This document shows positions 28,309 through 53,375 of a DNA stretch of 64,000 nt, one piece after another. This DNA is from Nocardioides pantholopis (GTDB lineage Bacteria; Actinomycetota; Actinomycetes; Propionibacteriales; Nocardioidaceae). The stretch spans positions 1,807,501-1,871,500 of the forward strand of contig NZ_CP033324.1 in the NCBI RefSeq assembly GCF_003710085.1. Reading direction: 5' to 3'. Position 1 is the stretch's first letter; every line of letters begins with the position of its first letter. The position numbers and the translations under genes were made by a program. Under the pieces are notes generated by a model. The model ran no database searches. It saw nothing but the letters and a program-made list of their open reading frames with translations, and was not told the DNA's origin.

Positions 28309-28412
<104 letters not shown>

Positions 28413-28571
28413 CCGCTCCGGCGGGAGACGGCTTCTGTGCTTGTGGAGGCGTGTGGCCACACTTCGCCACAGGTTTCTTCCCTCGGTCGGGCCGCGGGAA
28501 CCTCGCCCCGGGTGCTCGCCGAGCACCCTCCTCGGGCCATTCGTCTGGGCACAGACGAGAGGAACCCGAGC

Positions 28572-38057: not shown

Positions 38058-38129
38058 CTGGGGGTCAAGGGGTCGCAGGTTCAAATCCTGTCAGCCCGAC
38101 CGAAGAAACTGCAGGTCAGAGGCCGTTTT
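38058..38129. repeat. Right attachment site (attR), 72-bp direct repeat
   Basis: Exact copy of 28341-28412, including the 3' part of tRNA-Pro from the anticodon loop. There is no 5' tRNA half here, so it does not encode a functional tRNA. Past the exact repeat, the similarity to the left copy continues at roughly 85-90% to about 38597, covering the flank and the start of an integrase gene. Confidence 0.92.
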
Positions 38130-38249
38130 TCGCTCCTGCGGGAGACGGCTTCTGTGCTTGTGGAGCCGTGTGGCCACACTTCGCCACAGGTTTCCTCCTC
38201 GGTCGGGCCGCGGGAACCTCGCCCTTGGTGCTCGCCCCGGGTGCTCGCC

Positions 38250-38600
38250 CCCTTGGCGGCTCCCGGCGCCGGGTGCCGGACCCCGGCGACGTGCCGTCTG
38301 CTCGGCCGTGTCGTCTCCGGCCGGACGCCGGGCGCGGCCGGATCGGCGGGTGATGGTGGCGATCACCATCACCGACGAGGACGGCAGCACCCGGCGCGCC
38401 TTCTTCCGGGGCCGGACCCGACGCGAGGCGCGGGCGAAGGCCGAGGAGGCGCGGCGCCGGGTCGCGGCCGGGGCTCCGGTGCGCGACTCCGAGCGGACCC
38501 TGGCCGAGTGGCTGGGGGAGTGGCGGCGCATCTTTCTGCGCGCCAGCGACCGGGCCGCGTCCACCAGGAGCCTCTCCGGGCTGACGATCCGCCACGCGTC
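38250..38600 (+). pseudogene. Truncated second integrase gene
   Basis: Residues VSSPAGRRARPDRRVMVAIT through ASDRAASTRSLSGLTIRH align closely with residues about 20-120 of the intact integrase at 28572-29762. The catalytic domain is missing; after 38600 the similarity stops. The start codon region is also altered. This is the residue of a related element inserted at the same tRNA. Confidence 0.88.
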
Positions 38601-39324: not shown

Positions 39325-40236
39325 ATGGCCACGGACGGCGACGGCCGGTTGGTGTTTCTCGGTGCGCCGACTGCTGCCGCGGCCTATGGGCCCGGGCAGG
39401 ACCTCACCCCGGCCCGGCTGCGCACGGCAGGTCTGATGGACGCGCTCGGTGCCGTCCACTCCGGCCTCGAGGACCTGGGAGACGTCCCTCGACGCGAACA
39501 TAGGCGGGATGCCGGGAACGAACGTGCGCGAAACCTCCAGGACGTAGTCGCCGCCTCCCGAGATGTGGCAGCACGGCTGCGCCAGCCGCTCGCAGCGGGA
39601 AGCAGAGCTCTGGTGCTGGGTGGTGACTGCACCGTGGAGATCGGCGTCGTAGCGGCGGCGGTTGCCGCGGTCGACCGGGTGGGCCTGGTCTACGTCGACT
39701 ACGACGCTGACCTGAACGTGCCGGACACCGCCGACGGCCGGCTGGACTGGATGGGTGTGGCGCACCTGCTCGACCTCGACGGAACCGAGTCGTCCCTGGC
39801 CGGCATGGGCCCCCGCCGGCCTCTCCTCGAGCCCGCGGACATCCGTCTCCTGGGTGCGACGAACGTGACCGACTTCGAGCGCGGGCAGATCCGGCGTGAC
39901 TCGCTCCACGTCGAGGGGGTCGAGCTGCTCAAAGCCGACGTGGCCACGGTCACCGAACGCACCCGCGCGTGGGCCAGCGAGTACGACGTAGTCCTCATCC
40001 ACGTGGATGCCGATGTCCTGGACTTCGACGACTTCGCCGTGGCAGAGAACACCCGTCGCGTCGACGGCCTGACGCTGGCGGAGCTGAGGCGCCTCGTGGA
40101 GCAACTGGCGGCCATCCCCCAGGCCCGAACGCTGACGTTGGCCGAGGTCAATCTGGATCACGCCGCGGACCGCGCCCGCGCGGACCGCGAGCTGATCCTG
40201 CTCATGGCCCAGGTCGCGGCGGCCTGGAACGGCTGA
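39325..40236 (+). CDS. Arginase/agmatinase/formiminoglutamase family hydrolase
   Basis: A 303-aa ureohydrolase-fold protein. The Mn-binding motifs are VLGGDCTVEIG (usual GGDHS, here with Cys in the His position), VYVDYDADLNVP (usual DAHxD, here DYDAD) and LIHVDADVLDFDDFA (SxDxDxxDP-like). Two of the metal-ligand His residues are replaced, so substrate or even metal content may differ from true arginases. ATG with AGAGAGGAGC ribosome site. It faces the AmCP operon tail-to-tail and may act on an amidine or guanidine linked to the product, but this is inference. Confidence 0.82.
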   Translation: MATDGDGRLVFLGAPTAAAAYGPGQDLTPARLRTAGLMDALGAVHSGLEDLGDVPRREHRRDAGNERARNLQDVVAASRDVAARLRQPLAAGSRALVLGGDCTVEIGVVAAAVAAVDRVGLVYVDYDADLNVPDTADGRLDWMGVAHLLDLDGTESSLAGMGPRRPLLEPADIRLLGATNVTDFERGQIRRDSLHVEGVELLKADVATVTERTRAWASEYDVVLIHVDADVLDFDDFAVAENTRRVDGLTLAELRRLVEQLAAIPQARTLTLAEVNLDHAADRARADRELILLMAQVAAAWNG

Positions 40237-40334: not shown

Positions 40335-41111
40335 TCAGGGCTTGCCTGCCGCTGTCCTCGGGTCAGACAACCCCCCGGGTGCTCCTTGCGAGCGGCCCTC
40401 CGCGCGAAGCCGCTCGTAGAAGGGCTGGTGATACCCGACGTAGGCATCGGCGATCGCCTGGAGCGAGGCAGGCAGCGGTACCGCCGCCGTGGCAGTGAAC
40501 CCGGTGCTCGACGCGACCTCGTCGTGCCATCCCTGCGAGGCATGCTGCCACTCGTCCAGCGGGCCGGCGGACCACCGGAGAGCCTCGGGGTCGAAGGCGA
40601 TGCCGACGTGGTCGCAGTAGCACCTGACGGTCTCGACGGGCCTGGCGACCAACTGGTCGCCGTCGAGGATGTTCGGGCGGGTGCCGGTGAGCCCCGTGAT
40701 GGTCTCGTGGAGCTCTACGAGGTGCTCGAAACCGACGGCCGCGAGACCTGCCCGTGGATCGACGCGGAGGTGGGATGCGACCACGTCACGCGGGTTGCGG
40801 ATCATCAGGGTGTGGGTGGCTGCCCGCAAGAACACCTCGTCCGTCAGGACGGCCGGGTATCGGAAGTCCATGGTGTCCTTGAAGAACAGCGGACGGTCCT
40901 GGGCGAGCTCGAGAAGGGCCGTCTTCACCTCGCCCGGAGAGTGGCATCGGGTCTCGCCGACGGAGACCTCGCCGAAGTCGGTGACCCGGGAGAACGGCTC
41001 GTGGACGACCGTGTAGTCGCGGCGTTCGGTCATCATGCGCAGGAACGCCGTGGATCGGGCGCGAGGGACGCTCCACAGCGCCAGGAGACGGGGGACGGAC
41101 GAGGAAGTCAT
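40335..41111 (-). CDS. Sulfotransferase family protein, last gene of the AmCP operon
   Basis: A 258-aa P-loop sulfotransferase. The 5'-phosphosulfate-binding motif is SVPRARSTAFLRMM near residue 12, in the RSRSTAF style of this subfamily. The 3'-phosphate-binding motif is MIRNPRDVVASHLR. It would transfer sulfate from PAPS to a hydroxyl or amine. The start at 41111 avoids an unlikely 44-residue leader. It is 16 nt after the hydrolase gene, so O-sulfation of the hydroxylated amino acid made by the operon is a reasonable inference. Some members of this family have no proven activity. Confidence 0.8.
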   Translation of the reverse strand: MTSSSVPRLLALWSVPRARSTAFLRMMTERRDYTVVHEPFSRVTDFGEVSVGETRCHSPGEVKTALLELAQDRPLFFKDTMDFRYPAVLTDEVFLRAATHTLMIRNPRDVVASHLRVDPRAGLAAVGFEHLVELHETITGLTGTRPNILDGDQLVARPVETVRCYCDHVGIAFDPEALRWSAGPLDEWQHASQGWHDEVASSTGFTATAAVPLPASLQAIADAYVGYHQPFYERLRAEGRSQGAPGGLSDPRTAAGKP

Positions 41112-41127
41112 CAGACACCTCCGGTGT

Positions 41128-42288
41128 TCATCGGGGCAATCGGGTCTCGAGGATGGTGAGGGCGTCGTGGAGCACCCGGGTGCTGGAGAGCAGCTCCCGG
41201 ACTTGCAACTGCTCCTCGTCGCTGTGGTCGAGGGCAGCGTCACCGGGGCCGTAGGTGGCCATCGGCACCTGCCACACCTCGGCGAGCGTGTTCATGTCGG
41301 AGGTCCCGGTCTTCACCTGGTGCCGGCTCCGACCGTCGGCACGTGCGATGGCCGCGCTCAGGGCGGAGACGACGGGGTCGTTGCGCCGCACGCGGACCGC
41401 GTCGACGGCATTGATGACCGACACCTCGCCGCCAGCGCTCTGGTCCTCGACCCACGAGACCAGGTCGGCCACTCCCAGCCCGGGAGGGGTTCGGAATGAC
41501 AGCGAGCACCGGGCCGCGTGGCAGTCGCCGTGGAGGGAGGTGACCGCGAGGCTGACCTTCTTGAAGCTGCTGTTGCCGGCAGTCCCGTAGAGGTCCAGGA
41601 CTCGAGCGCAGAACGTGAGCATGTCCTCGCTGGCCTGCGGCCCCGGGTGTGCCGGGTGGCGCGCGGGTGTCCTGACGGCGTACTCGAGATCGAGCTTGCC
41701 CTTGTAACCCAACGTGATCGCGTCCCAGCCGGACGGCTCGCCGATGACGACTGCGTCCGGCGGCGGCAGGTGCTCGCGAATCCACATCGCCCCCCGGGAA
41801 CAAGGCGTCTCCTCCTCCACAGCACCGACGACGCCTACGCGCAGACCGTCAGGTCGACGCTGTGCGGCGTAGCGGGCCGCCGCTGCGAGCATGGCCACGA
41901 GCGGCCCTTTCGCATCCACGCTGCCGCGACCGTGGAGCACGCCGTCGGCGAGCGACGCGGAGGGGCCGCCGGGCACCGTGTCGATGTGACCGAGCAGCAG
42001 GACGGTCGGGCTGCCTGTGGGGTCCGCGGCCGTCCACGCCTGAGCGTTGCCCGCGTCGTCGATAAAGGCCTCCAGCCCCCACTCGCGCGCGATCTCGACG
42101 AACAGGCACGCCGCGAGCGCCTCCTGGCGAGACGGCGAGGGAGTCCGCACCAGTGCGAGAGCGGCGTCGGTGACCGCGGCGTCGACGGGGGTGCGACCGG
42201 TCCCGCGCGGTTGCCCGTCCGAGGGCTCGGGTCGGGGCCGGCCGGGTCCGCCTGCGGTCCGCCGGCCCGCTCGCTCGCTGCTCGTCAT
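41128..42288 (-). CDS. lysK: LysK-like [AmCP]-amino acid hydrolase (M20 metallopeptidase)
   Basis: A 386-aa M20 di-zinc hydrolase. The metal and catalytic residues are in LLGHIDTVPGG (His, Asp), GRGSVDAKGPLVAM (bridging Asp) and VGAVEEETPCSRGA (catalytic Glu-Glu). GEPSGWDAITLGYKGKLDL and the late TSDMNTLAEVW are LysK-like features. In AmCP pathways it cleaves the isopeptide bond between the product and the carrier's terminal Glu. A 50-residue disordered N terminus is present. Its ATG overlaps the lysZ stop (ATGA). It is the release step of the proposed pathway. Confidence 0.9.
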   Translation of the reverse strand: MTSSERAGRRTAGGPGRPRPEPSDGQPRGTGRTPVDAAVTDAALALVRTPSPSRQEALAACLFVEIAREWGLEAFIDDAGNAQAWTAADPTGSPTVLLLGHIDTVPGGPSASLADGVLHGRGSVDAKGPLVAMLAAAARYAAQRRPDGLRVGVVGAVEEETPCSRGAMWIREHLPPPDAVVIGEPSGWDAITLGYKGKLDLEYAVRTPARHPAHPGPQASEDMLTFCARVLDLYGTAGNSSFKKVSLAVTSLHGDCHAARCSLSFRTPPGLGVADLVSWVEDQSAGGEVSVINAVDAVRVRRNDPVVSALSAAIARADGRSRHQVKTGTSDMNTLAEVWQVPMATYGPGDAALDHSDEEQLQVRELLSSTRVLHDALTILETRLPR

Positions 42289-43196
42289 GATGCCGACCTC
42301 GTCCCCGGGGCGCCTCGGGACGACCCGGCGACGCCCGGCAGGCCGTTCCGGATCCCGGGACCGGCGTACCCCTCCCGGCACTCGATGACGGTGCCCGCGC
42401 CTTGGAGAGCGGCTTGGACCGGTCGGGGCCGACGGCCGTCGCTGATGTGGACCCGCGGGACTCCTCCGGCGATCGCCTCGCCGGCGGCGATGAGCTTCAT
42501 GCGCATCCCGCCGCGGGCCAGGACCCCGTCGATCGCGCCACGTCCGTCGAGTGCCTCGGCGTCGAGCCGGCTCAGGCAACTGGACGGATCGGACGGGTCG
42601 GACAGCAGCCCTGGTGCGGAGGTGAGGAGGATGAGGCGGTCGGCGTCAGTGGCGCTCGCGACGTTGGCCGCCAGGCGGTCTGCGTCGACGTTGACGACCT
42701 CGCCCTCGACCGTGAGGGCGGGCGGCGAGAGCACCGGGACCAGCCCCAGGTCGTGGATGCCGGCCAGGACGTCGGCCTCCACCTGCTCGATGCGGCCGGC
42801 GAGGTTGTCACGGACGACGACGCGTCGACCGTCCACGACGGCGCGGACGGTGCCCTTGCGGCGCGCGCGGACCAGGCCGGCGTCCAGCGCGCTCATCGAC
42901 AGCGCCCGCACGTGGGCCTTGTGCAGGCTCACGACGAGCTGCGGCTTGACCTCTCCGAGGAGGGCCAGTCGGACGGACCGCAGGGTCTCTGCGTCCGTGT
43001 AGCGGGTCTCGGTGCCGTCGGGAGCGTGCAGACGACGACCCGGGATCCCGAGGCGAGCCCCGATGGCGTCGATGGCAGCGGATCCTCCGTGCACGAGCGT
43101 GACGGTGTCCCCTGCAGCGACGTGGGCAGCCACATCTAGGGCTACCTGGTCGAAGTCGACGTCTCCGTGGCCTCCGCACTTGATCACGAGCTTCAT
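42285..43196 (-). CDS. lysZ: LysZ-like [AmCP]-glutamate/aminoadipate kinase (ArgB family)
   Basis: A 303-aa amino-acid kinase. The start MKLVIKCGGHGDVD gives the ATP-binding K-x-G-G strand. TLVHGGSAAIDAIGARLG is the substrate-side loop and EVVNVDADRLAANVASA the acetylglutamate-kinase-type motif. It should phosphorylate the free side-chain carboxyl of the carrier-bound amino acid. The C terminus has a 35-residue extension rich in Gly/Ser. It is 37 nt after lysY and overlaps lysK. Confidence 0.9.
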   Translation of the reverse strand: MKLVIKCGGHGDVDFDQVALDVAAHVAAGDTVTLVHGGSAAIDAIGARLGIPGRRLHAPDGTETRYTDAETLRSVRLALLGEVKPQLVVSLHKAHVRALSMSALDAGLVRARRKGTVRAVVDGRRVVVRDNLAGRIEQVEADVLAGIHDLGLVPVLSPPALTVEGEVVNVDADRLAANVASATDADRLILLTSAPGLLSDPSDPSSCLSRLDAEALDGRGAIDGVLARGGMRMKLIAAGEAIAGGVPRVHISDGRRPRPVQAALQGAGTVIECREGYAGPGIRNGLPGVAGSSRGAPGTRSAS

Positions 43197-43233
43197 TCCG
43201 CGTCCTGCCTCTCGGTCCTTGGGGGTCGGGGGG

Positions 43234-44250
43234 TCACACCGGGTGAAGACCGGCGCCGTGGAGTCCTGTGGTCTCGGGCAGTCCGAGTCGCACGTTCATG
43301 CACTGCACGGCGTTTCCCGCGGCACCCTTGACGAGGTTGTCGAGCGCCGCGACGACCGCCACCGTGGTCCCGTCGGTCTCGAAGCCGACGTCGCAGTAGT
43401 TGGACCCCAGCAAGACCTTCGGGTCCGGGTAGCGGAAGGCTCCACTGCGCTGGGCCACGAGGCGGATGAACGGCTCGTTCTCGTACGTCCCGCGGTAGAT
43501 CCGCCACAGGTCCGCGACGTCGATCCCGATGTCTGCGCGAGCGACGACCTGGACCCCGCGCACCGCCGCGGTGCTGGTGACTGTCATGCGTGGATCCAGC
43601 CCCGTGCTCTGCTGGATCTCGGCCTGATGCCGGTGTCGGAGAGGAGCGAAGACCCGCATCGCTCCGGCACGCAGCGCGTGACCGTCCGCCGGTGTGCTGC
43701 CCGCGCCACTGCCACTGCTGCCGGTGCGGGCGTCCACGTTGATCGGGATGGTGTCGTCTGCCAACCCTGCGATGGCGAGCGGGCGCAGCGCGAGGATGGC
43801 TGCGGTCGCCATGCACCCCGCGACCGCGATCCGGTCGGCGCCGCGCAGTGCCGAGCGGTTGAGTTCCGGCAGTCCGTAGGTGAACGCCCCGCGGTGCTCG
43901 GTGTGGCGTCGCCACCCGTAGTGTCGCTCCATGAGCGCGCCGTCGGCCAACCGGAAGTCCCCGGCCAGGTCGATGAGGACGCCGCAGCGCGAGGCGTAGG
44001 TCTCCACCATCTCCTGGGAGTTGCCGTGCGGAAGCGCCGAGAACAGGACGTCGACCTCGGGGAGCTCGGCGGGGTCGATGAAGCGTTCGTCCACGATAGA
44101 GCGCAGGTGTGGGTGCGCGCTGCTCACCGCCTTGCCCGCTCGGCTCCCGGAGGCCACGGCTCGGACCGTCGCCGCGGGGTGGAGGTGCAGCAGACGGAGA
44201 AGCTCGCCTCCGACGAAGCCGGAGCCCCCCAGGATCCCGACGCTGTGCAT
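43234..44250 (-). CDS. lysY: LysY-like [AmCP]-aminoacyl phosphate reductase (ArgC family)
   Basis: A 338-aa semialdehyde dehydrogenase. The NADPH-binding site is VGILGGSGFVGGELLRLL at the N terminus and the catalytic Cys is in AVAGCMATAAILAL near residue 148. The C-terminal half carries NYCDVGFETDGTTVAVVAALDNLVKGAAGNAVQCMN, split here as the ArgC-type ending. It reduces the acyl phosphate made by LysZ to the aldehyde on the carrier. Starts ATG in a TGATG overlap with lysX. Confidence 0.92.
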   Translation of the reverse strand: MHSVGILGGSGFVGGELLRLLHLHPAATVRAVASGSRAGKAVSSAHPHLRSIVDERFIDPAELPEVDVLFSALPHGNSQEMVETYASRCGVLIDLAGDFRLADGALMERHYGWRRHTEHRGAFTYGLPELNRSALRGADRIAVAGCMATAAILALRPLAIAGLADDTIPINVDARTGSSGSGAGSTPADGHALRAGAMRVFAPLRHRHQAEIQQSTGLDPRMTVTSTAAVRGVQVVARADIGIDVADLWRIYRGTYENEPFIRLVAQRSGAFRYPDPKVLLGSNYCDVGFETDGTTVAVVAALDNLVKGAAGNAVQCMNVRLGLPETTGLHGAGLHPV

Positions 44251-45146
44251 CAGGCCGCACCGGTCATGCTGCCGCTCGCGGCAGTCCGGCACATCTCGAC
44301 GATCGCGGCGGCGATGTCGATCCCGGTGGCGCGCTGCAACCCGGCGAACTCGACGCCTGCGTTCACCTCGAGAACCAGCAGCTCGCCGCCGGGCCGCTCG
44401 AGCAGGTCGACGCCAGCGATGTCGGCGCCGGTCGCCCGAGCGGCGGCGACCGCGAGGTCGGCGACGTCGCGACGCTCTACGAGCGGGAAGTCCGCGACCT
44501 CGCCACCGCGAGCGACGTTGTGCCGCCACTCTCCTGGGCTGCTGCTGACGCGTCGCTCCGCGGCCACCGCTTGTCCGCCGACGACCAGCACGCGTAGGTC
44601 TCCGGCGGGAGCTGGCACGTACTCCTGCAGCAGGGGCAGTTTGGCCTGTGGCGACGGCAGCGCCTCGCAGTGCTCGAGGACGGCCCGCGCGGCGAACGCA
44701 TCGGTCAGGAGACTGACCCTACGGCCCCACGAGGACGCCTGGGGCTTGAGGACGACGGGGTAGCCGACGTCTCCGATCAGATCCATGGCCTCCTGTGTGT
44801 CCGTCACGGCCCAGGTGGCCGGGGTGGGCAGGACGTGGGCCTCCAGGGTCAGCGCGGTCGCCCACTTGTTGGCGCACACCTCGATCGCTTCCGCTGAGTT
44901 GATAACGGTTCGGCTCGGGTGAGCGAGTCCGTGGGCGACCACGGCCGCTCGGTGCTGAGCGATGTCGCGCATCAGGTAGACGCCCGGGGAATGACCCGTG
45001 CCGGAGGCAGACAGGCGCATCCGCCGCGGGTCGACGTGTTGCCACTCAAGGCCACTGGCCTCCAGGGCCGCGATGATCGACTTCTCCTCCGCCCGCAGCC
45101 GCGATGCGACGAGGGTGATGGGAGAGGGGGTACGGGGGACGTCCAC
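44250..45146 (-). CDS. lysX: LysX-like ATP-grasp ligase loading glutamate or aminoadipate on AmCP
   Basis: A 298-aa RimK/LysX ATP-grasp enzyme. ATP-binding segments are NKWATALTLEAHVLPTPATW, VVLKPQASSWGRRVSLL and QEYVPAPAGDLRVLVVGGQ. The catalytic ARGGEVADF loop and Mg-binding ending LLVLEVNAGVEFAGL are intact. It would join the alpha-amino group of the substrate amino acid to the side-chain carboxyl of the carrier's C-terminal Glu. GTG start only three bases after the lysW stop. Substrate choice (Glu or aminoadipate) cannot be settled by eye. Confidence 0.93.
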   Translation of the reverse strand: MDVPRTPSPITLVASRLRAEEKSIIAALEASGLEWQHVDPRRMRLSASGTGHSPGVYLMRDIAQHRAAVVAHGLAHPSRTVINSAEAIEVCANKWATALTLEAHVLPTPATWAVTDTQEAMDLIGDVGYPVVLKPQASSWGRRVSLLTDAFAARAVLEHCEALPSPQAKLPLLQEYVPAPAGDLRVLVVGGQAVAAERRVSSSPGEWRHNVARGGEVADFPLVERRDVADLAVAAARATGADIAGVDLLERPGGELLVLEVNAGVEFAGLQRATGIDIAAAIVEMCRTAASGSMTGAA

Positions 45147-45149
45147 GGC

Positions 45150-45323
45150 TCACTCGCCCCAGTCCTCTTCAGGCTCCGGGGCGAGGACCAACACCGGGGG
45201 GTCGGTGGAGAGGACCTCGAGCTCACTGAGGCAGTGCTTGCAGTCGATCACCTCCCCGACCATGGTGTTCGCGGGCAGGGCCAGCTCGTCTGAGCAGGTG
45301 ATGCAGGCGGTCGTGGTGGCCAT
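45150..45323 (-). CDS. lysW: Amino-group carrier protein (LysW-type AmCP)
   Basis: A 57-aa acidic zinc-ribbon protein, MATTTACITCSDELALPANT at the N terminus, with Cys pairs CITC (residues 7-10) and CKHC (residues 28-31) for zinc. It ends PEPEEDWGE, the EDWG(E) tail that defines LysW/AmCP proteins; Glu57 is the attachment point. A strong AGAAGGAGA ribosome site precedes the ATG, and a 96-nt gap separates it from the upstream gene. This fits a carrier made in excess over its enzymes. In amino acid biosynthesis it protects the alpha-amino group of glutamate or aminoadipate. Confidence 0.95.
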   Translation of the reverse strand: MATTTACITCSDELALPANTMVGEVIDCKHCLSELEVLSTDPPVLVLAPEPEEDWGE

Positions 45324-45419
45324 GGTGTTTCTCCTTCTCGGTGGGGTGCTGGTGTAGGTGGCTCAACTGGTGACCCGGTCGGTGCTGAGCGATCGCTCTG
45401 CGGATCCGGGGCCGGGGGG

Positions 45420-46484
45420 TTATGGCGCGTCGGCAAGACCTGCCCGGATACGTGCGGTGATGGACGACGCATCGAGGCCCGCGGCGTGCACCTGGAATGC
45501 GTGGTCGCCGGGCGTCGCGCAGAAGGTGTCCGGGACGGCCAGGCGCAGCATCCGGCGTGGTGAGTGGGCGGTGAGGATGTCAGCGATGGCGTCACCGAGG
45601 CCGCCGCTGCGCCAGTGTTCCTCGAGGGTGACCACCAGTCCCTGGGTGTTTCCGCTCGGCTCGGGCAGCAGGTCCACGACGGCGTCGGTGAACAACGGTT
45701 TGAGGGTGTGCACGTTCACGACGGTCACGCCGGTGCCGTCTCGTCCCAGTGCTTCGCTGGCGAGGTGTGCGGCAGCGAGCTGCTCGGGCCCGCAGGCGAA
45801 GACGGTGACCGAGCGGTCGACCCCCTCGGCCGGGGAAGCCACCACCTGCGGGACACCGAGGACGGACCGACTATCCCCAGGCAGGACGGGCGACGCTCTG
45901 CGGCCCAGCCGCAGGTAGGAAGGTCCGTCGGCCGCGAGCAGCTGCCGCAGCAGCTGGGCTGCCTGCAACGCGTCGCCCGGCGCGACGACCGCGACGTTGG
46001 GTAGCGCCCGCATGAGACCGAGGTCCTCGAGGCAATGGTGGGTCGCTCCCAGGAACCCGGCCGAGAGACCGGCGTGCGTCCCGATCAGGACGATCGGGAG
46101 GTTGGCGTAGGCGACGTTGAGCTTGATGGCGTCGGCGGCCCGGTTGACTGCGAAGGCGGCGAACATGAAGACCACCGGACGCATGCCTTCCCGGGCCAGG
46201 CCGGCAGCCACCGAGACCGCCGTGTGCTCTGCGATCCCGATGTTGAGGTACCGCTCGGGGCACTGCGCGAAGTCCGAGGCGGCGAACAGGCCGGTGTCGG
46301 TGTCGATGCACACCACCCGGTGGTCGAGTTGCATCTGCTCGATTACCACCGCCTTAGCCGCGGCGCGGGTCGCCGCCGTCGGGGATGCAGGAGCGTCCAT
46401 TGGGCGGGTCGGGGCACGCCCGTCGCTGGCCTTCCGCGGAGAGGGCGCCCCGGCGAGGTGGGGGTCGGCCGAGGCGCGCGTCAT
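45420..46484 (-). CDS. Transketolase, C-terminal subunit (split type)
   Basis: A 354-aa protein with the pyrimidine-binding and C-terminal domains of transketolase. The catalytic Glu that activates thiamine diphosphate is in NIGIAEHTAVSVAAGLA. THAGLSAGFLGATHHCLEDL matches the phosphate/sugar-binding loop of the family. A 45-residue low-complexity leader precedes the domain. ATGA overlap with the N-terminal subunit. In AmCP pathways such an enzyme adds a two-carbon ketol unit to the carrier-bound aldehyde. Confidence 0.92.
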   Translation of the reverse strand: MTRASADPHLAGAPSPRKASDGRAPTRPMDAPASPTAATRAAAKAVVIEQMQLDHRVVCIDTDTGLFAASDFAQCPERYLNIGIAEHTAVSVAAGLAREGMRPVVFMFAAFAVNRAADAIKLNVAYANLPIVLIGTHAGLSAGFLGATHHCLEDLGLMRALPNVAVVAPGDALQAAQLLRQLLAADGPSYLRLGRRASPVLPGDSRSVLGVPQVVASPAEGVDRSVTVFACGPEQLAAAHLASEALGRDGTGVTVVNVHTLKPLFTDAVVDLLPEPSGNTQGLVVTLEEHWRSGGLGDAIADILTAHSPRRMLRLAVPDTFCATPGDHAFQVHAAGLDASSITARIRAGLADAP

Positions 46485-47431
46485 GATCCGCCGGCCCCTG
46501 GTCCCGTGCTCGTGAGTGCTTGCAGGCTCCTGGCCAGCCGGGACTCGTCGAGGGTCACGAAGTGCGACCCCACCTTGCGCTCGAGGAATGCGATCCCGCG
46601 GGCCTTCACGGTCTCCGCCACCACCAGCAGGGGTGCGGAGGGCAACGAGCCCCCCGCGCCGGTGGGTGCGGCCAGGGTTGCGCCCAGGGCGCGGAGGTCG
46701 TGTCCGTCGACGTTCGCGATGGTCCATCCCAGAGCGCCGAGGCCTGCAGCGGGGTCGACGGAGCCCAGCACCGCGGCGGTGGAGGTCGACTGCTGCAGAC
46801 CGTTCTTGTCCACGACGGCGGTGAGGTTGCCCAGGCGGCGTGCCGCGGCGACCAGTGCGGCCTCCCACACCGCGCCTTCCTGCAGCTCACCGTCCCCGAG
46901 CACGACGACCACTCGACCGGGTCGTCCTTGCAACCGCCGGGCCAACGCGTAGCCGACGCCGATTCCGAGCCCGTGTCCCAGGGAGCCGGTGGCGACCTCG
47001 ATCCCAGGGACGTGAGGCGAGGGATGGCCCCCCAGGGGCGCGCCGGGCTGGCCGTACCGGTCGGTGTGCTCCGCAGGAAGGATGCCCCGCTCGACCAGGG
47101 TGGCGTAGAGGGCGGCCCCTGCGTGACCTTTGCTCAGGATCACGATGTCGCGGTCGGGGTGATCGACGTTCGCTGCGGTGATGTTCAGCGACGAGAAGTA
47201 GAGCGTGGTCAGCACCTCGACCAGCGACAGGGATCCGCCGAGGTGCCCGCCCTCGGGTCCAGCACACATCCGGGTCACCCGCTCACGGACACGCGCAGCG
47301 ATGCGGTCGAGCTCGCCGACGGAGTCACTCGCGTCATACCCCGGGCCCGGGTGGGTCTCAACTCCGGCGGCGGCCGGGCGGCCGGTGCCCAGCGGCCTCG
47401 CCGGGTCGCACGCCTCGGCTCTGGGCGTCAT
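46481..47431 (-). CDS. Transketolase, N-terminal subunit (split type)
   Basis: A 316-aa thiamine-diphosphate-binding subunit. The TPP/Mg motif is VVLGDGELQEGAVWEA ... LTAVVDKNGLQ. GGHLGGSLSLVEVLTTLYF and ILSKGHAGAALYATL are the usual conserved segments. The start at 47431 gives an ATGA overlap with the aminotransferase gene; an ATG at 47479 is less likely. It needs the adjacent C-terminal subunit for a complete active site. Split transketolases of this kind occur in secondary metabolism as well as in anaerobes. Confidence 0.92.
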   Translation of the reverse strand: MTPRAEACDPARPLGTGRPAAAGVETHPGPGYDASDSVGELDRIAARVRERVTRMCAGPEGGHLGGSLSLVEVLTTLYFSSLNITAANVDHPDRDIVILSKGHAGAALYATLVERGILPAEHTDRYGQPGAPLGGHPSPHVPGIEVATGSLGHGLGIGVGYALARRLQGRPGRVVVVLGDGELQEGAVWEAALVAAARRLGNLTAVVDKNGLQQSTSTAAVLGSVDPAAGLGALGWTIANVDGHDLRALGATLAAPTGAGGSLPSAPLLVVAETVKARGIAFLERKVGSHFVTLDESRLARSLQALTSTGPGAGGS

Positions 47432-48711
47432 CGTCGCCTCGATGCGGTCAGGGCGGGCACGAGGTTCACGTGCTGCCACGTCTTGTGGAACGCCTCGGCG
47501 TACTGACGAAGAAGCGGCGCAGCGGACGGGTCGAGGTGCCGGCGCTGGAGGACGAAGGAGTCTGCGAGCACGGCCCTGGTCACCGGGATCTCCTCGTTCG
47601 CGGTCGTCGGCGGGAGGTCGGAAAAGGCAGGCTGGTCCGACAGCGGAATCAGCTGGTATCGGGTGACGGGTACGCCCTCGGCGCGTAGGAGCCGTTGAAG
47701 TGCCTCACGGACGGGTCCGGCCTCGGAACGGTCCAGGCCGGCAACGCCGGGATCGATGCGGAATCGCAGGATGTGCCACACGTGACGCGCCCGAGGATCG
47801 GCCGCGCGGGGGACATGCAACCCGGCGAGCGGCTCGAGTGCGGTGAGGAACTCGCGGACGTTGCGGTCCTGGCATTCGGAGGTCGCCTCGAGGCGCCGCA
47901 GCTGGCTGGAGGTGAAGGCCGCCTGCACCGAGCTCAGCTTGGCGTTGTGGCCCACGATGTGGGAGAGGTATTTGCGTGGACGGCCGCGTTCAATGACCTC
48001 ACCGAACTGGCGGAGCTGGCGGAGCCGACTAGCCACGGCGTCGTCGTCGGTGACGAGGAGGCCGCCCTCGCCGCAGGTGGGAAGGTTCTTGGTGGCCTGC
48101 AGGCTGAAGCAGCCGATGCTGCCGAACGTGCCTACGTGGCGCTCTTCGATGGTGGCGCCGTGGGCCTGTGCGGCGTCCTCGATCACGGCCAGGCCGTGGG
48201 CCTGGCAGATCTCCATCACCTGGTCCATCGGGGCCGGCAGTCCGTGGAGGTGCACGGGCATGACGGCGACGGTGCGGGCAGTGATCGCGGCTCGCAACGA
48301 GTCCGGGTCGATGTTGTAGGTCACCGGGTCGATGTCGGCGAAGACTGGCCGGGCGCCCCGGTTGACCACCGCCATCGCGGTGGCGACGAAGCTGAGCGCG
48401 GGAACAACCACCTCGTCGCCCGGCCCGACCCCTATTGCCTCCAGAGCCAGTTCCAGCGCGATCGTCCCGTTGGCGACGCCGATGCAGTGACGTGCGCGGA
48501 CGTATTCGGCCCACTCGGTCTCCAACCGGTCGACGGCGGTCTCCTCGTTCCTGTCCGAGACCAGCGCGCCGTCGGAGAGCACGCCCAGGACTGCGTCGCG
48601 GTCGGCTGGTGTGATGACCGGCCAGGTGGTCGAGTCGGGCAGGGTCACGGCTCGCGACCCGCCGGAAAGGGCCGGCTGCGCGATCGACCGCGCTGCCGAC
48701 GCCAGCCCCAT
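47428..48711 (-). CDS. DegT/DnrJ/EryC1-type PLP aminotransferase
   Basis: A 427-aa aminotransferase of the sugar-aminotransferase group. The PLP Lys is K208 in SLQATKNLPTCGEGG. HCIGVANGTIALELALEAIG is the cofactor-phosphate region and AVIEDAAQAHGATIEERHVG the Asp that binds the pyridine N. Such enzymes aminate ketones next to hydroxymethyl groups. In this operon the likely substrate is the 6-keto group formed by the transketolase on the carrier. TGATG overlap upstream. Confidence 0.92.
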   Translation of the reverse strand: MGLASAARSIAQPALSGGSRAVTLPDSTTWPVITPADRDAVLGVLSDGALVSDRNEETAVDRLETEWAEYVRARHCIGVANGTIALELALEAIGVGPGDEVVVPALSFVATAMAVVNRGARPVFADIDPVTYNIDPDSLRAAITARTVAVMPVHLHGLPAPMDQVMEICQAHGLAVIEDAAQAHGATIEERHVGTFGSIGCFSLQATKNLPTCGEGGLLVTDDDAVASRLRQLRQFGEVIERGRPRKYLSHIVGHNAKLSSVQAAFTSSQLRRLEATSECQDRNVREFLTALEPLAGLHVPRAADPRARHVWHILRFRIDPGVAGLDRSEAGPVREALQRLLRAEGVPVTRYQLIPLSDQPAFSDLPPTTANEEIPVTRAVLADSFVLQRRHLDPSAAPLLRQYAEAFHKTWQHVNLVPALTASRRR

Positions 48712-49799
48712 CAGGCCGCTCCCTCGGCGCTGATCCAACATTCGTAGAGGTAGGCAGTGGTCTCGTAGGCCTGCCGCAGCTGCTGGGCCCGACGCCGCAG
48801 CTGGGAGTTCTGCTGCTGCGGTGTCTCGACCAGATGGGCGCCGAGCACCCGTAGGTTCGTCCAGGCCGAGGCGATGGCGTGGGACGAGCGACCGATCACC
48901 GCGAGCCTGGGGTCGGCCCACTCGGCGCTCGCCCAGGTCAGCAACCGACCGTGCATGAAGCCCTGCGCCTGGAGCGGCCATGCCATGGCGTACAGGTCCG
49001 AGAGCGCCTCTGCCTTGCCGTCGGCGGCCGCTGCCACGAGCTCATCGAGGTAGACGGCGAGACCCGGGATCCCGGTCAGCGCTCCGGCGGAGTCCGTGCT
49101 GGCGTCGGTGACGGCCAGGTCAGGGGCTCGCTGACCCTGTCCGCTGAGCCCGGCGAGATTGGTCTCGATGGTGAGCCGCAGTTCGTCGTGGGTCATCGGG
49201 TGGAAGTCGTCATCAATGGTGATTCGGAGGCACCGGTACTCGATGCCGCTCGAGCTGAAGAAGGCGTCTTGCTCGTCCGCCGGGTTGGCCGACCCCCACG
49301 CGGAGAGGAAGGGGGCGAGCTCGACATGTCCACGCCACACCGGTGGCTGAGCGTCGGAGATCGACAGGGTCTGCCGGCCTTCGTCGAGTCCGTCGATGAC
49401 CACGAGATGGGCCGCGTGGACGTCGTGGAAGGCGGGTCGGTAGGGAAGGTGGAAGTTGTCGACCGCAGCCACCAGCAGCTCATCCTGGACGAGTGCCTCG
49501 TAGAGCTGCCCGATGACGTCGTGGGAGTCCGGGCGCCACCAGCGAGAGTGGATCCCGTGGAACGGGGCGAGGTCTCCGAGCACACCGTTAGGGGACGTGG
49601 CCGGGTAGTAGAACTCCTCGCTGGTCACCTCGCCCGGGAGATGGACGAATCCGAGGTTGCGCCCCAGGACCTGGAGGGGGTCGGCGCCTCGCGCCATCAG
49701 GACCGTCGCGACGGTCGTGTGCAGGCAGTTGAGCGGGTCGTGATACCACTGCTCGAGCTTGCGGGCCTGGAAAGTGCGCAACTCGTTGGGTCTAGGCAT
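48711..49799 (-). CDS. BtrH-like (butirosin H N-terminal domain) transferase/peptidase-fold protein
   Basis: A 362-aa protein with the papain-like BtrH N-terminal domain. Candidate catalytic residues are C25 (DPLNCLHTT), H131 (HAAHLVVIDG) and D136. The C-terminal 150 residues are helical (YETTAYLYECW near the end). BtrH in butirosin synthesis moves a carrier-bound acyl chain to an aminoglycoside amine. Here a carrier-dependent transferase is attractive, but the AmCP bond is an isopeptide rather than a thioester. It overlaps the next upstream gene by 8 nt. Confidence 0.78.
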   Translation of the reverse strand: MPRPNELRTFQARKLEQWYHDPLNCLHTTVATVLMARGADPLQVLGRNLGFVHLPGEVTSEEFYYPATSPNGVLGDLAPFHGIHSRWWRPDSHDVIGQLYEALVQDELLVAAVDNFHLPYRPAFHDVHAAHLVVIDGLDEGRQTLSISDAQPPVWRGHVELAPFLSAWGSANPADEQDAFFSSSGIEYRCLRITIDDDFHPMTHDELRLTIETNLAGLSGQGQRAPDLAVTDASTDSAGALTGIPGLAVYLDELVAAAADGKAEALSDLYAMAWPLQAQGFMHGRLLTWASAEWADPRLAVIGRSSHAIASAWTNLRVLGAHLVETPQQQNSQLRRRAQQLRQAYETTAYLYECWISAEGAA

Positions 49800-50400
49800 C
49801 GAAGCTCTCCAAACGACTCGGGATGAGAGTCATGGCGTAGAGGTGGATGGCGACGTTGTCGGGGAGGGTTACACCCGATAGCGGCACCATTCGGGTGACG
49901 GGGACCCGTTGGAACCACACGTCCCCCCGCAGGTTCGGTTGCACGTGGAAGGGATAGTGCATCTGCGTGGTGCCGAAGGCGCGACGGTCGCCGAAAGCGG
50001 GTTCGGCGTGCCAGAAGTCCGAGACACGGAAACTCTCGAAATCGACAGACCCGTCAGCGAAGTGCAGCGAGAATTGGTCCTCGGACCTTCGTTCCGACGT
50101 GGCCAAGAGATAGATCCAGTCATACGAACCCGACGCGCAGGCGAGGTGCTGACCGGAGCAGACGACGTTGTCGGGGTTGATTCCGTCGAACCGGGGGAGC
50201 GAGAAGCCCACGCCGTGGATCTCGAGCAGGCCCGCCGTCGGCATCTCCACTTGGGGCAGCGAGTTGCGCCAGATATTCAACCGACCCTCCCGGAGTGAGT
50301 CGGTCGTCGTGCAGCTGAGGTTGTTTCGGTGTCCTGACAAGTCGACAAGCGTCCCGGCCGAGCCGCCGGCCGTGGTCACCCTCGTCGTCGTTTCGGTCAT
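49792..50400 (-). CDS. Conserved beta-rich hypothetical protein, first gene of the AmCP operon
   Basis: A 202-aa protein predicted to be a beta sandwich (ELPV-like opening, FSLPRFDG, GSYDWIYLLATSERRSEDQF, HFADGSVDFESFRVSDFW, NVAIHLYAMTLIP). The pattern of a sugar- or ligand-binding jelly roll with Trp-rich strands is like accessory domains of actinobacterial glycosidases. No catalytic residue stands out and there is no signal peptide. ATG at 50400 chosen; 19 upstream residues are unlikely. As the promoter-proximal gene it is probably needed for the pathway, possibly for binding the product. Confidence 0.7.
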   Translation of the reverse strand: MTETTTRVTTAGGSAGTLVDLSGHRNNLSCTTTDSLREGRLNIWRNSLPQVEMPTAGLLEIHGVGFSLPRFDGINPDNVVCSGQHLACASGSYDWIYLLATSERRSEDQFSLHFADGSVDFESFRVSDFWHAEPAFGDRRAFGTTQMHYPFHVQPNLRGDVWFQRVPVTRMVPLSGVTLPDNVAIHLYAMTLIPSRLESFDA

Positions 50401-50449
50401 CGCGGACTCCAGTTCCGGTGGTCGAGAGCAACGGCTGGCCAGCGGTCGC

Positions 50450-50508
50450 TGACTCACTCTTGACTCGGCTCGCCGCGTGAGTCAATAGTCAGTCATCATT
50501 TCTTGACT
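50450..50508. promoter_or_regulatory. Divergent promoter/operator region of the AmCP operon
   Basis: The 124 bp between the operon (ATG 50400, minus) and a small plus-strand gene (ATG 50525) holds TGACTCACTCTTGACT at 50450-50465, an inverted GTGAGTCA at 50477-50484 and a further TTGACT at 50503-50508. TTGACT at 50460 with AATAGT at 50484 (18-nt spacer) is a possible plus-strand promoter. TTGACT read on the minus strand (50485-50480) may be the -35 for the operon. The 16-bp word is repeated exactly at 52302-52317. Confidence 0.7.
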
Positions 50509-50524
50509 ATCGGGAGGACAGCTC

Positions 50525-50695
50525 ATGTCACGGAGATCTCGACTCGCTGGCGGCATTGCACTCTTCGCCTTGTCCCTGTCCGTGCTCGTGGTCAACCCGG
50601 CGGGGCCGGAGGGGTCGACGAGGCCAGGTGACTCGGCAGCTCCTGGGCCCGCCGGATCGAAGCCCGCGAAGAGCGGTCCCCCGACCTGCTGCTAG
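50525..50695 (+). CDS. Small exported or membrane peptide (56 aa)
   Basis: A 56-aa frame starting MSRRSRLAGGIALFALSLSV with positive charges then a 16-residue hydrophobic helix, followed by a Pro/Gly/Ser-rich tail ending PPTCC. A GGGAGG ribosome site sits 8 nt before the ATG. It shares the operator region with the AmCP operon. It could be a secreted peptide, a small membrane protein, or a signal sensed by the adjacent TPR regulator. No family is recognised. Confidence 0.55.
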   Translation: MSRRSRLAGGIALFALSLSVLVVNPAGPEGSTRPGDSAAPGPAGSKPAKSGPPTCC

Positions 50696-50746
50696 CAGGA
50701 GCGCCGAGGCATCGCGGGTCAGGAGCCTGCGCCGGGCGGTCTGGGC

Positions 50747-52186
50747 TCAGTGACGGCTCGAGTCGGCTTCCTGCTCCTCGTTGCTGGCATCGTGCCTGCG
50801 GAGCAGGGCGCGCACGGAGCGAGGCACGATGCCGAGGGCCGCGGCCGCCGCTTCCATCGCCTCGGTCGCGAGAGTGGTCTCCCCTGCGTGCGCGGCGAGC
50901 TCGGCGAGATCGCGCCAGACCCGGGCGGCTTCACGCCGTGCGGCCATGTCCTGCAGCTGGAACGCAGCGGCTCGCATCGCGGCTGCGCCGTGTCCGACGT
51001 CTCCGGAGAGGATTAGCCCCTGCCCCAGGATCGCGTGAGCCCGGGCGCCCTCGATGGTCGGCGCGTGACGGAGGAGGTCGATCGCGGACGTCGCGGTCCG
51101 GCGCGCGGCCTCGAAGTCGCCGATGAGGAGGTCGCAGCGGGCCAGCTCGGTCAAGCAGGCTGCCAGGTCGACGGCGGAGCCCTCCACCTGGAGATCGATT
51201 TGCGCATGGAGGAGCAGTCGCCGGGTCGCTTCGACATCGTCGCCACCCGTCTCGAGCTGCAGCCAGGCGTACGCAACCTTGAGACGAGCCAGGTTGCGGG
51301 TGTTGTCGCTCTCACCGAGTATCGCGAGAGCACGCTCGGCCAGCATCAGCGCCTCGTTGAGTCGGTTCTCGGCCGCGGCCACGAGGCTGCTGTTCCACAG
51401 GGCCCCGCCGCGGGCACGATGGGATCCGAGGCGCTCGGTCTGCTGGAGCACCCGACTCAGGACGTGAGCGGCGCGGGCCAGGTCTCCACGCTCGTAGTAG
51501 GCGCCGCCCAGGGTGGTCGCCAGCACTGCGGCGGAGTCCGTCAGCTCCTGGTCGCCGAGCCGGCGGTTGACGGCCTCGCCGACGTCGATGGCACGGTCGA
51601 GGTCTCCGATCTCCTTGTAGCAACGGCACAGCTGGGTCTGGGCCGCGGTCCAACGCTCGGCGTCCTCGGTGAGTCGGGGGCCCACCTGCTCCAGGAGGTC
51701 GACCGCCTCGAAGAGCTGTCCGTTGAGCTCATGCGCGGTCGCCAGGAGTAGCTGCGCTTCGCTGCGCTCGACCGGACCGAGCTCCTCGTTGTCCAGGAGT
51801 CGGCGCAAGGGGGCGAGTGCGTCGGTGGCATCGCCGTTGTAGAGGGCGATGCGGGCCCAACGCAGTTCCAGCTGGGTCTCCACAGAGGCCGGGGTGGCCA
51901 GCTCAGAGTTGCCGGTCAGTTCGGCCGGAGTCGTCTGGAGCCTGTCGGCGAGGATCCGCAGCACGTCGTCGGTGGGGTTGCGCTGACCTGACTCGAGCAG
52001 GGAGACGTAGCTGGGGGAGAGGTCGTCACCGGCCAGCACGCGCTGGGATAGGCCGCGCTCCTTGCGGAGCCTGCGGATGCGTGCGCCGAGCTGGAGCTGG
52101 GCGTTCGGCGCTTCCGCCGGGTCGCCGAGGGGCCGGGGATCCGGCGCGGGACCGGAGCCGCTGATGAACGAGTCGCTACCCACCAT
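50747..52186 (-). CDS. XRE-family regulator with TPR domain (cluster regulator)
   Basis: A 479-aa protein. An N-terminal HTH_XRE domain (residues about 32-85, RIRRLRKERGLSQRVLAGDD, then SPSYVSLLESGQRNPTDDVL) is followed by about 350 residues of TPR-like helical repeats (AAHVLSRVLQQTERLG, NEALMLAERALAILGE). This architecture is used by regulators that bind peptides or small molecules, such as the RRNPP and actinobacterial TPR regulators. ATG 52186 with GGAGG. It lies between the AmCP operon and the exporter and probably binds the repeated TGACTCACTCTTGACT motif. Confidence 0.88.
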   Translation of the reverse strand: MVGSDSFISGSGPAPDPRPLGDPAEAPNAQLQLGARIRRLRKERGLSQRVLAGDDLSPSYVSLLESGQRNPTDDVLRILADRLQTTPAELTGNSELATPASVETQLELRWARIALYNGDATDALAPLRRLLDNEELGPVERSEAQLLLATAHELNGQLFEAVDLLEQVGPRLTEDAERWTAAQTQLCRCYKEIGDLDRAIDVGEAVNRRLGDQELTDSAAVLATTLGGAYYERGDLARAAHVLSRVLQQTERLGSHRARGGALWNSSLVAAAENRLNEALMLAERALAILGESDNTRNLARLKVAYAWLQLETGGDDVEATRRLLLHAQIDLQVEGSAVDLAACLTELARCDLLIGDFEAARRTATSAIDLLRHAPTIEGARAHAILGQGLILSGDVGHGAAAMRAAAFQLQDMAARREAARVWRDLAELAAHAGETTLATEAMEAAAAALGIVPRSVRALLRRHDASNEEQEADSSRH

Positions 52187-52298
52187 GAACCTCCAGAACG
52201 CACTGCATGGGTGACCGGGCCTGCCCCGTCGCAATCACCTCGGGTGAGTTCGGCGCGGACACAGCCCCGCCCCAGCGTACTCGCCCATAGTCGCGTCT

Positions 52299-52340
52299 GA
52301 GTGACTCACTCTTGACTACGGGAGTCGTTGCAGTCATGGT
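52299..52340. promoter_or_regulatory. Operator/promoter of the exporter and regulator genes
   Basis: GAGTGA-C-TCACTC (52299-52311) is a perfect odd palindrome and is part of TGACTCACTCTTGACT (52302-52317), identical to the copy at the AmCP operon. TTGACT (52312-52317) with CATGGT 17 nt later (52335-52340) forms a plausible promoter toward the exporter. A repressor bound to the palindrome would cover the -35 box. Confidence 0.7.
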
Positions 52341-52372
52341 CAGTGAACATTCTGCGGTGTCCGGGAGGATCG

Positions 52373-53002
52373 ATGATCGACTTCAATGTCCTGCCGGCGT
52401 TCTTCGCGGCGGCTGTCGCGATCTGCCTGGCGCCCGGTCCAGATCAGGCCTTCATCGTTGCCGCAGCCGGTACCGGGGGGCGCCGAGCTGGAATCTTCGC
52501 CTCCGCCGGGATGGCCGTCGGTATCGCAGTCCATACGACCTTGGCTGCCCTGGGTCTCGCAGCCGTCCTGGGTGCGAGCCCGACAGCCCTCCAGGTGGTC
52601 CGCGTCGTGGGAGCCGGATACCTGGCGTACCTGGCGTGGGCGACCTTCCGATCGCTGAGGTCGGGCACTGGGTCGGACGGGAACGGTCCGCCATCGGTCG
52701 AGCAATTCTCAGCATTCCGGCGCGGCCTGCTGGTCAATCTGACGAATCCGAAGATCATCTTGTTCTTCGCGTCGTTCCTGCCGCAGTTCGTCGGGTCTGC
52801 TGATGCGTACGCGCCGCAGTTCCTGATGCTCGGCGCGGTTTTCCTGATCGTGGGATTCGTGATCGACGCCGGGATCGGGATAGCCGCGGGACAACTCCGA
52901 GAGTCCTCGTCCTCGAACGGGCGCGCCCGTGCCGGGCTGACGCTGCTCGCGGGCACGACCTACTCGGTGCTCGCCGCGTTGCTCGTCGCCCAGTCGATCT
53001 GA
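52373..53002 (+). CDS. LysE/RhtB family amino acid exporter
   Basis: A 209-aa permease with six predicted membrane helices. The family motif APGPDQAFIVAAAGTGGRRAG is in the first loop and LVNLTNPKIILFFASFLPQF in the middle. LysE-type transporters export amino acids and analogues. The start ATG 52373 follows GGGAGG. Its promoter carries the same operator as the AmCP operon, so it is the probable exporter of the pathway product. Confidence 0.93.
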   Translation: MIDFNVLPAFFAAAVAICLAPGPDQAFIVAAAGTGGRRAGIFASAGMAVGIAVHTTLAALGLAAVLGASPTALQVVRVVGAGYLAYLAWATFRSLRSGTGSDGNGPPSVEQFSAFRRGLLVNLTNPKIILFFASFLPQFVGSADAYAPQFLMLGAVFLIVGFVIDAGIGIAAGQLRESSSSNGRARAGLTLLAGTTYSVLAALLVAQSI

Positions 53003-53119: not shown

Positions 53120-53375
53120 CAGCCAATGACTACGGCGAGGTGCAACCAGCCCTCACTGGTGCGGTGCTGGGTGACGTCCGCGACGTAGAGTCGGTCCGGC
53201 GCGTCGGGGTTGAACCTGCGCTCGACTAGGTCATTGGACGGTGTCGCTGCCCGATCGCGGCGGGTGCAGTCGCTGAGCCGACGCCGGTGCACGCCCATGC
53301 AGGTCGGTGTGGCGCATCACTCGTTCGACCCGGCCGTGGCTGACGCGCACGCCGTGGCGGGGGAGCCCGAGGACG
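53120..53375 (-). pseudogene. Remnant of an IS3-family transposase OrfB
   Basis: Two short frames correspond to the middle of an IS3 OrfB: HGVRVSHGRVERVMRHTDL in one frame and VHRRRLSDCTRRDRAATPSN through DRLYVADVTQHRTSEGWL in another. They match residues about 80-175 of the intact OrfB at 29833-30735 but differ in many positions, so this is from a different IS copy. Both ends and the DDE residues D2 and E are gone. Confidence 0.85.

What the first reader, a model, noticed from the sequence alone, without database searches (positions are those of the whole stretch)
40335..53002. Amino-group carrier protein (AmCP) secondary-metabolite cluster on a genomic island
An eleven-gene operon with mostly overlapping reading frames contains the full carrier module (LysW, LysX, LysZ, LysY, LysK) but none of the other lysine genes (no homocitrate synthase, no homoaconitase, no LysJ). 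AmCP modules without the lysine genes are known for secondary metabolism in Streptomyces (vazabitide A, Hasebe and co-workers). Here the same logic appears in a Nocardioides-like genome with added BtrH-like, beta-sandwich, sulfotransferase, LysE-type and XRE-TPR genes and no NRPS. I know of no described product for this combination.
Basis: partly seen in the sequence, partly recalled or inferred. Interest (0 to 1): 0.93.

Follow-up and report, generated by a model that had tools for sequence, protein, structure and literature searches.

The report
Stand-alone aziridine amino-acid operon
Eleven adjacent genes, in a bacterium whose genome shows no NRPS condensation domain, match enzymes that make the reactive aziridine part of antibiotics such as azinomycin; they are predicted to make that part as a free small amino acid, likely exported, rather than build it into a larger peptide.

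The parts
40335..41111 (-). sulfotransferase (PF19798), predicted to sulfate O7 of DADH
   Evidence: Pfam E 4.9e-14 on a frame 12 bases longer; present in 52 of 68 loci; no PDB sequence match
41128..42288 (-). LysK-type M20 hydrolase, predicted to release the product from LysW
   Evidence: 317 bits; cut-off of [LysW]-lysine hydrolase 363
42285..43196 (-). LysZ, [LysW]-amino-acid kinase
   Evidence: NCBIfam NF010659 over cut-off
43234..44250 (-). LysY/ArgC-type reductase
   Evidence: TIGR01850 over cut-off
44250..45146 (-). LysX/RimK-type ligase
45150..45323 (-). LysW amino-group carrier protein, ends EDWGE
45420..46484 (-). transketolase C-terminal half
46481..47431 (-). transketolase N-terminal half
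47428..48711 (-). DegT-type aminotransferase, predicted C6 amination
   Evidence: PDB 8gyh E 5.4e-128
48711..49799 (-). AziU3 homologue, aziridine synthase subunit
49792..50400 (-). AziU2 homologue, aziridine synthase subunit
50450..50495 (.). 16-bp sequence AGTCAAGAGTGAGTCA and an inverted near-copy before AziU2 (putative operator)
50747..52186 (-). XRE-TPR protein, putative regulator
52302..52317 (.). second exact copy of the 16-bp sequence, between the XRE-TPR and lysE starts
52373..53002 (+). LysE/RhtB-type exporter (longer frame starts at 52328)
   Evidence: PF01810 E 4.2e-33; 209-aa form
39325..40236 (+). arginase-fold protein with changed metal-ligand motifs, possible pathway member
   Evidence: relatives near AziU2/U3 in 3 of 68 loci
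38058..38578 (+). second tRNA-Pro 3' end plus integrase remnant (left border of the element)
28309..29762 (+). tRNA-Pro and open-frame integrase of the first element
53120..53364 (.). remnant like the IS3-type transposase gene at 29833-30735
   Evidence: 80-83% repeats, rve domain

Best explanation
This is an eleven-gene set whose proteins match the carrier-bound DADH route and both subunits of the azinomycin aziridine synthase AziU3/AziU2, and it is predicted to make an aziridine-bearing amino acid that is likely released free and likely exported by the neighbouring LysE protein. Predicted steps: (1) LysX joins glutamate by its amino group to the C-terminal Glu of LysW. (2) LysZ and LysY turn its side-chain carboxylate into an aldehyde. 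(3) The split transketolase adds a two-carbon ketol unit, giving a C7 chain. (4) The DegT enzyme aminates C6, giving the DADH skeleton. (5) The sulfotransferase, with PAPS from the genome's own APS kinase, sulfates O7. (6) AziU3/AziU2 lets the C6 amine displace the sulfate and close the aziridine. (7) The LysK-type hydrolase cuts the molecule off LysW, before or after steps 5 and 6. With no condensation domain found in the genome and no oxidase in the operon, the product would be a free 2-amino-5-hydroxy-5-(aziridin-2-yl)pentanoic acid, C7H14N2O3. Shown: gene identities, folds, kept key residues, gene order, absence of condensation-domain matches, the shared promoter sequence. Inferred: every chemical step in this organism, release as a free amino acid, export, regulation by the XRE-TPR protein.
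For: AziU3 and AziU2 by sequence and model. 7WUX holds (5S,6S)-O7-sulfo-DADH in AziU3/U2 (PMC11168924, figure-legend passage); a review calls AziU3/U2 'functionally an aziridine synthase' (PMC12559475, passage). AmCP-to-DADH chemistry: PMC9303977 (passages). Transketolase, aminotransferase, sulfation, aziridine order: PMC9570651 (passages). All 11 genes in 32 of 68 loci, co-linear in L036, L041, L042, L046 and plasmid locus L133, which form the sister clade of the window's group, joined at 100/98. Key residues kept. 0 condensation domains in the genome; two PP-binding domains, neither in the window. APS kinase present. The 16-bp sequence lies only before AziU2 and lysE.
Against: Most AziU2/U3 loci have NRPS-like sequence within the fetched flanks (55 of 68, two of them weak), so the usual fate of this building block is a peptide; an unlinked ligase of another kind could use it here. 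The co-linear sister loci all have NRPS genes near, so the window could be a stripped remnant. LysW, LysX and LysK score below NCBIfam's cut-offs for the lysine-pathway carrier, ligase and hydrolase. LysE was matched in 1 of 68 loci (L023), and none of the 120 listed LysE relatives (of 979) lay on a contig of the lengths that carry the closest AziU2/U3 relatives. No self-resistance gene was recognised on the island; AlkZ-like genes lie elsewhere. No substrate was tested.
Confidence: 0.6

Rival explanations
1. The aziridine amino acid is made but is then joined to another unit by an unlinked, non-NRPS ligase, so the final product is a dipeptide or amide.
For: Known relatives are peptides or peptide hybrids; 55 of 68 related loci have NRPS-like sequence near.
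Against: No condensation domain in the genome; no further ligase among the window genes scanned next to the operon.
Confidence: 0.18
2. The operon is a decaying remnant of a larger NRPS cluster and makes nothing useful.
For: NRPS genes flank the co-linear relatives; the element carries an integrase remnant and an IS remnant.
Against: All eleven frames are open and the key residues checked are kept; the promoter sequence is shared with an exporter gene.
Confidence: 0.1
3. The pathway stops at DADH or its sulfate, or AziU3/U2 here closes a different ring.
For: About 40% identity to AziU3/AziU2 leaves room for a new substrate.
Against: AziU2 E103, R104, R105, D128 and AziU3 C25, H128, H131 are invariant in 70 or 71 homologues; the sulfotransferase, which supplies the leaving group, is in the same operon.
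Confidence: 0.09
4. The genes serve ornithine/arginine or lysine synthesis.
For: LysW, LysX, LysY, LysZ and LysK are those of the AmCP route.
Against: A separate arginine operon lies before the window; no homocitrate synthase over the cut-off; AziU2/U3, DegT, transketolase and sulfotransferase have no place in that route.
Confidence: 0.02

Closest known systems
Azinomycin azabicycle pathway (AziU2/AziU3, Streptomyces sahachiroi)
   Same: AziU3 and AziU2 homologues at about 40% identity; route over DADH, sulfate and aziridine as reviewed in PMC9570651
   Different: The review gives an N-acetyl-glutamate route with the carrier route as an alternative; here the carrier genes are in the operon. 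No PKS, NRPS or oxidase in the operon; the window's AziU3 lies in another clade
Ficellomycin producer's clade (Streptomyces ficellus AziU3 homologue P0185)
   Same: AziU2/U3, DegT, transketolase halves and sulfotransferase in most of the clade's loci; the DegT protein's best PDB match is 8gyh, which I recall as a ficellomycin enzyme (not checked)
   Different: Another AziU3 clade and gene order; NRPS-like sequence near in 17 of that clade's 20 loci
Vazabitide A pathway (AmCP Vzb22)
   Same: LysW-type carrier and DADH by an AmCP route (PMC9303977); I recall Vzb10/11 as its aziridine synthase
   Different: Its product is a nonribosomal peptide; Vzb sequences were not compared here
Streptomyces sp. 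NBC_00525 plasmid cluster (L133) and L036, L041, L042, L046
   Same: Identical 11-gene order on one strand; sister clade of the window's group
   Different: NRPS genes near in all five; in L133 also P450, GNAT, cysC and cysD; no LysE match in these loci

Membership tests
AziU3/AziU2 aziridine synthase | Homologues of both subunits, encoded side by side | tested here: met
   genes overlap at 49792-49799
AziU3/AziU2 aziridine synthase | Converts O7-sulfo-DADH into the aziridine | not testable with these tools
   only the ligand of 7WUX is documented; no assay
AmCP-mediated DADH pathway | LysW-type carrier with C-terminal Glu, plus LysX, LysY, LysZ and a hydrolase | tested here: met
   (some below NCBIfam's lysine-pathway cut-offs)
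AmCP-mediated DADH pathway | Transketolase and sugar-type aminotransferase | tested here: met
AmCP-mediated DADH pathway | Makes DADH on the carrier | not testable with these tools
   no assay
Azinomycin/ficellomycin/vazabitide-type peptide clusters | NRPS that builds the unit into a peptide | tested here: not met
   0 condensation domains in 4.04 Mb; NRPS queries reach 38 bits over 54 aa in the window
Azinomycin/ficellomycin/vazabitide-type peptide clusters | Sulfotransferase together with DADH genes and AziU2/U3 | tested here: met
AmCP lysine or arginine pathway | Class-III (LysJ-type) aminotransferase with the carrier genes | tested here: not met
   the operon holds DegT instead; a class-III aminotransferase lies in the separate arginine operon
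LysE/RhtB exporters | Family profile match | tested here: met
   PF01810 E 4.2e-33
LysE/RhtB exporters | Transports the operon's product | not testable with these tools
   only the shared promoter sequence points to it

The most novel reading that the evidence does not exclude
A mobile, NRPS-independent operon makes the bare aziridine warhead of the azinomycin family as a free amino acid, exports it through a dedicated LysE carrier and ties synthesis and export to one operator sequence: a self-standing reactive antimetabolite in a bacterium that has no NRPS.
Probability: 0.45. Interest if true: 0.75.

Novelty: new variant of a known kind. Interest (0 to 1): 0.62.

Why it matters
Aziridine natural products are rare alkylating agents, and the AziU3/U2-type examples that I met in the passages read belong to peptides or peptide hybrids. 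An NRPS-free operon would be a compact source of the warhead, would make the order of sulfation, ring closure and release from the carrier directly testable, and would show that the warhead pathway moves between bacteria as a module. It also gives a mining signature: 'BtrH-like plus small beta-sandwich protein' next to amino-group carrier genes points to aziridine formation.

Tried and rejected
Arginine or lysine role: rejected. AziU2 elsewhere in the family: 27 of 341 genomes besides G000 gave matches of 49-103 bits against 287 for G000. I scanned seven of the proteins concerned; six hold recognised GH31, GH92, PKD/3-keto-disaccharide-hydrolase or NPCBM-associated domains outside the match, so do their kin in L100 and L103, and I did not count these as aziridine synthases; the others were not scanned. 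AziU3 in the order: of 391 genomes sampled, G000 and two others match in full; three more score 21-27 bits and were not counted. SDR and choloylglycine-hydrolase genes at 54-56 kb: no match in the 68 loci at 1e-5, so left out. No solved structure matched the sulfotransferase by sequence. Right island border: no further tRNA-Pro end downstream; the only other copy in the genome is at 255713 on the other strand. NRPS scan of the 68 loci: 18 of the 20 fetched condensation loci served as queries (two failed the motif filter); 13 loci gave no hit, six of them on loci shorter than 17 kb; the L014 and L016 hits are weak (154-158 bits). In one search one LysW position was mis-set (it read residue 8, not a cysteine) and is not used. 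Vzb and AziC sequences were not at hand to compare.

Literature: I recall Hasebe 2016 and Kurosawa 2022 as the key primary papers; they did not appear in the held library's listings and I read neither. For the papers cited I saw the passages returned by 'find' only. Searches for a prior NRPS-free case. I saw none in their listings, which covers open-licence papers only and does not show that none exists.
Full report
What is there. Between 40335 and 50400 eleven minus-strand genes follow each other, six of ten junctions overlapping. In reading order: AziU2, AziU3, DegT aminotransferase, transketolase N half, transketolase C half, LysW, LysX, LysY, LysZ, LysK and sulfotransferase. An XRE-TPR gene lies upstream and a divergent LysE gene beyond it.

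The rest of the pathway. AmCP-bound synthesis of DADH and its use in vazabitide A and s56-p1 are described in PMC9303977 (passages). PMC9570651 (passages) describes the azinomycin order: kinase, reductase, two-carbon extension by a transketolase, aminotransferase to DADH, sulfation, aziridine; it draws this with N-acetyl-glutamate and names the carrier route as an alternative. Each of these functions has a gene here. The DegT protein's best solved relative is 8gyh/8gyi/8gyj (E 5.4e-128), which I recall as a ficellomycin enzyme. Residues that I take from recall to be catalytic or cofactor-binding are kept across homologues: DegT Lys208 in 56 of 56, transketolase H103/D180/N210 in 51 of 51 and E86 of the C half in 49 of 49, LysW terminal Glu in 41 of 42 (one not covered), sulfotransferase R17 and S20 in 53 of 53, LysK H101 in 50 of 51 but E158 in only 42 of 51, AziU2 E103-R104-R105 in 70 of 70, AziU3 Cys25 and His131 in 71 of 71. 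PAPS supply is possible: one strong APS kinase match at 3566028 and a marginal second one.

How common it is. A scan of the genome collection (84,980 species by its description) with an AziU3 alignment gave 68 loci, all from records with actinobacterial titles. All eleven genes are found in 32 of 68 (best tblastn match anywhere in the locus), DegT plus both transketolase halves in 48 of 68, a sulfotransferase in 52 of 68; AziU2 lies beside AziU3 in 70 of 71 loci, three extra ones included. Exactly the window's order on one strand occurs in L036, L041, L042 and L046 and in the plasmid locus L133. In a maximum-likelihood tree of 78 AziU3 sequences these five form the sister clade of the window plus four metagenome proteins (joined at 100/98), apart from the S. 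sahachiroi and S. ficellus sequences. So the core is a module shared with other clusters, and the window belongs to a branch of its own.

What is unusual. First, no NRPS. The genome (4.04 Mb, one contig) has 0 condensation-domain matches and only two PP-binding matches, both outside the window, whereas all 27 comparison genomes that I searched (27 of the 68) have condensation domains, and 55 of 68 loci have NRPS-like sequence within the fetched flanks (two weak, and six of the 13 misses on short loci). In L133 the same eleven genes are embedded among NRPS, P450, GNAT, cysC and cysD genes. Second, rarity near home. Of 341 family genomes only this one has a full-scoring AziU2 (287 bits); 27 others have matches of 49-103 bits, and those scanned are parts of other proteins. 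Of 391 genomes sampled from the order, only this one and two others have a full-scoring AziU3. One of these two has the same AziU3 as the Kribbella soli locus L022 on a contig of the same length, which places the window in Propionibacteriales but in another family; 'Nocardioides-like' fits but was not proven. Third, AGTCAAGAGTGAGTCA occurs once before AziU2 and once between the XRE-TPR and lysE starts, with an inverted near-copy (2 mismatches) before AziU2. These three are the only genome matches with up to 2 mismatches, and the control pattern gave 0; in the window, with up to 3 mismatches, 3 were seen against 0.21 expected. This ties the exporter region to the operon. That the XRE-TPR protein binds it is inference.

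Mobility. The tRNA-Pro gene at 28309-28384 is followed by an open integrase frame (28437-29762). The tRNA 3' end and the start of the integrase are repeated at 38058-38578, 95-97% identical, with the rest of the second integrase missing. The sulfotransferase end of the operon lies 1.8 kb beyond this copy, so the operon likely sits in a second element stacked behind the first. A remnant like the IS3-type transposase lies at 53120-53364. The right border is not resolved. G+C is 67.2-72.3% in 40-54 kb against 70.7-77.2% in 2-26 kb.

Mechanism and limits. The best reading is a pathway that loads glutamate on LysW, builds DADH, sulfates O7, closes the aziridine and releases a free aziridinyl amino acid, C7H14N2O3, exported by LysE. 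Whether sulfation and ring closure happen on LysW or after release is open; the 7WUX ligand is written as sulfo-DADH without the carrier. The bicyclic ring of azinomycin would, as I understand the chemistry, need further oxidation, for which the operon has no gene. An arginase-fold protein at 39325-40236 with changed metal-ligand motifs (GGDCT, D-x-D-L) has relatives close to AziU2/U3 in 3 of 68 loci; it may belong to the pathway, and its role is unknown.

Verdict. It is an NRPS-free variant of a known kind of pathway, with a specific product and mass to look for.

Noticed in passing
[not shown]
   Followed up: partly
window:48711-49799: AziU3 shares its fold with CtaG and CcbD; Cys25, His131 and Asp149 are kept in 71, 71 and 70 of 71 homologues. 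Titles of CtaG variants name C11, H128 and D144; whether these superpose was not checked.
   Followed up: partly
L022, L141, L142; also L030, L033, L059: AziU2/U3 without any match to the carrier, transketolase or DegT genes in the fetched stretch (L030 and L033 are cut short on one side); NRPS-like sequence near L022, L030, L033 and L059. The DADH genes lie elsewhere or the substrate differs.
   Followed up: no
L034 and L040: AziU2/U3 clusters without NRPS-like sequence in the fetched 20 kb; in L034 a PLP-dependent decarboxylase and an arabinofuranosidase-C-terminal-domain gene lie directly before AziU2, and L040 has frames of the same length and similar starts there.
   Followed up: partly
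window:39325-40236: Arginase-fold protein whose metal-ligand motifs are changed in a similar way in the three cluster-linked homologues.
   Followed up: partly
window:31234-35589: 1451-aa protein of bacterial Ig-like domains with 258-nt repeats, behind the first integrase.
   Followed up: no
window:36018-37076: Frame that joins a CobN/Mg-chelatase piece to a helix-turn-helix, possibly remnants.
   Followed up: no
own genome 309850, 1022493, 2440006, 3052034, 3295789: Five matches to the AlkZ-like glycosylase family, four strong and one marginal, none in the window.
   Followed up: no
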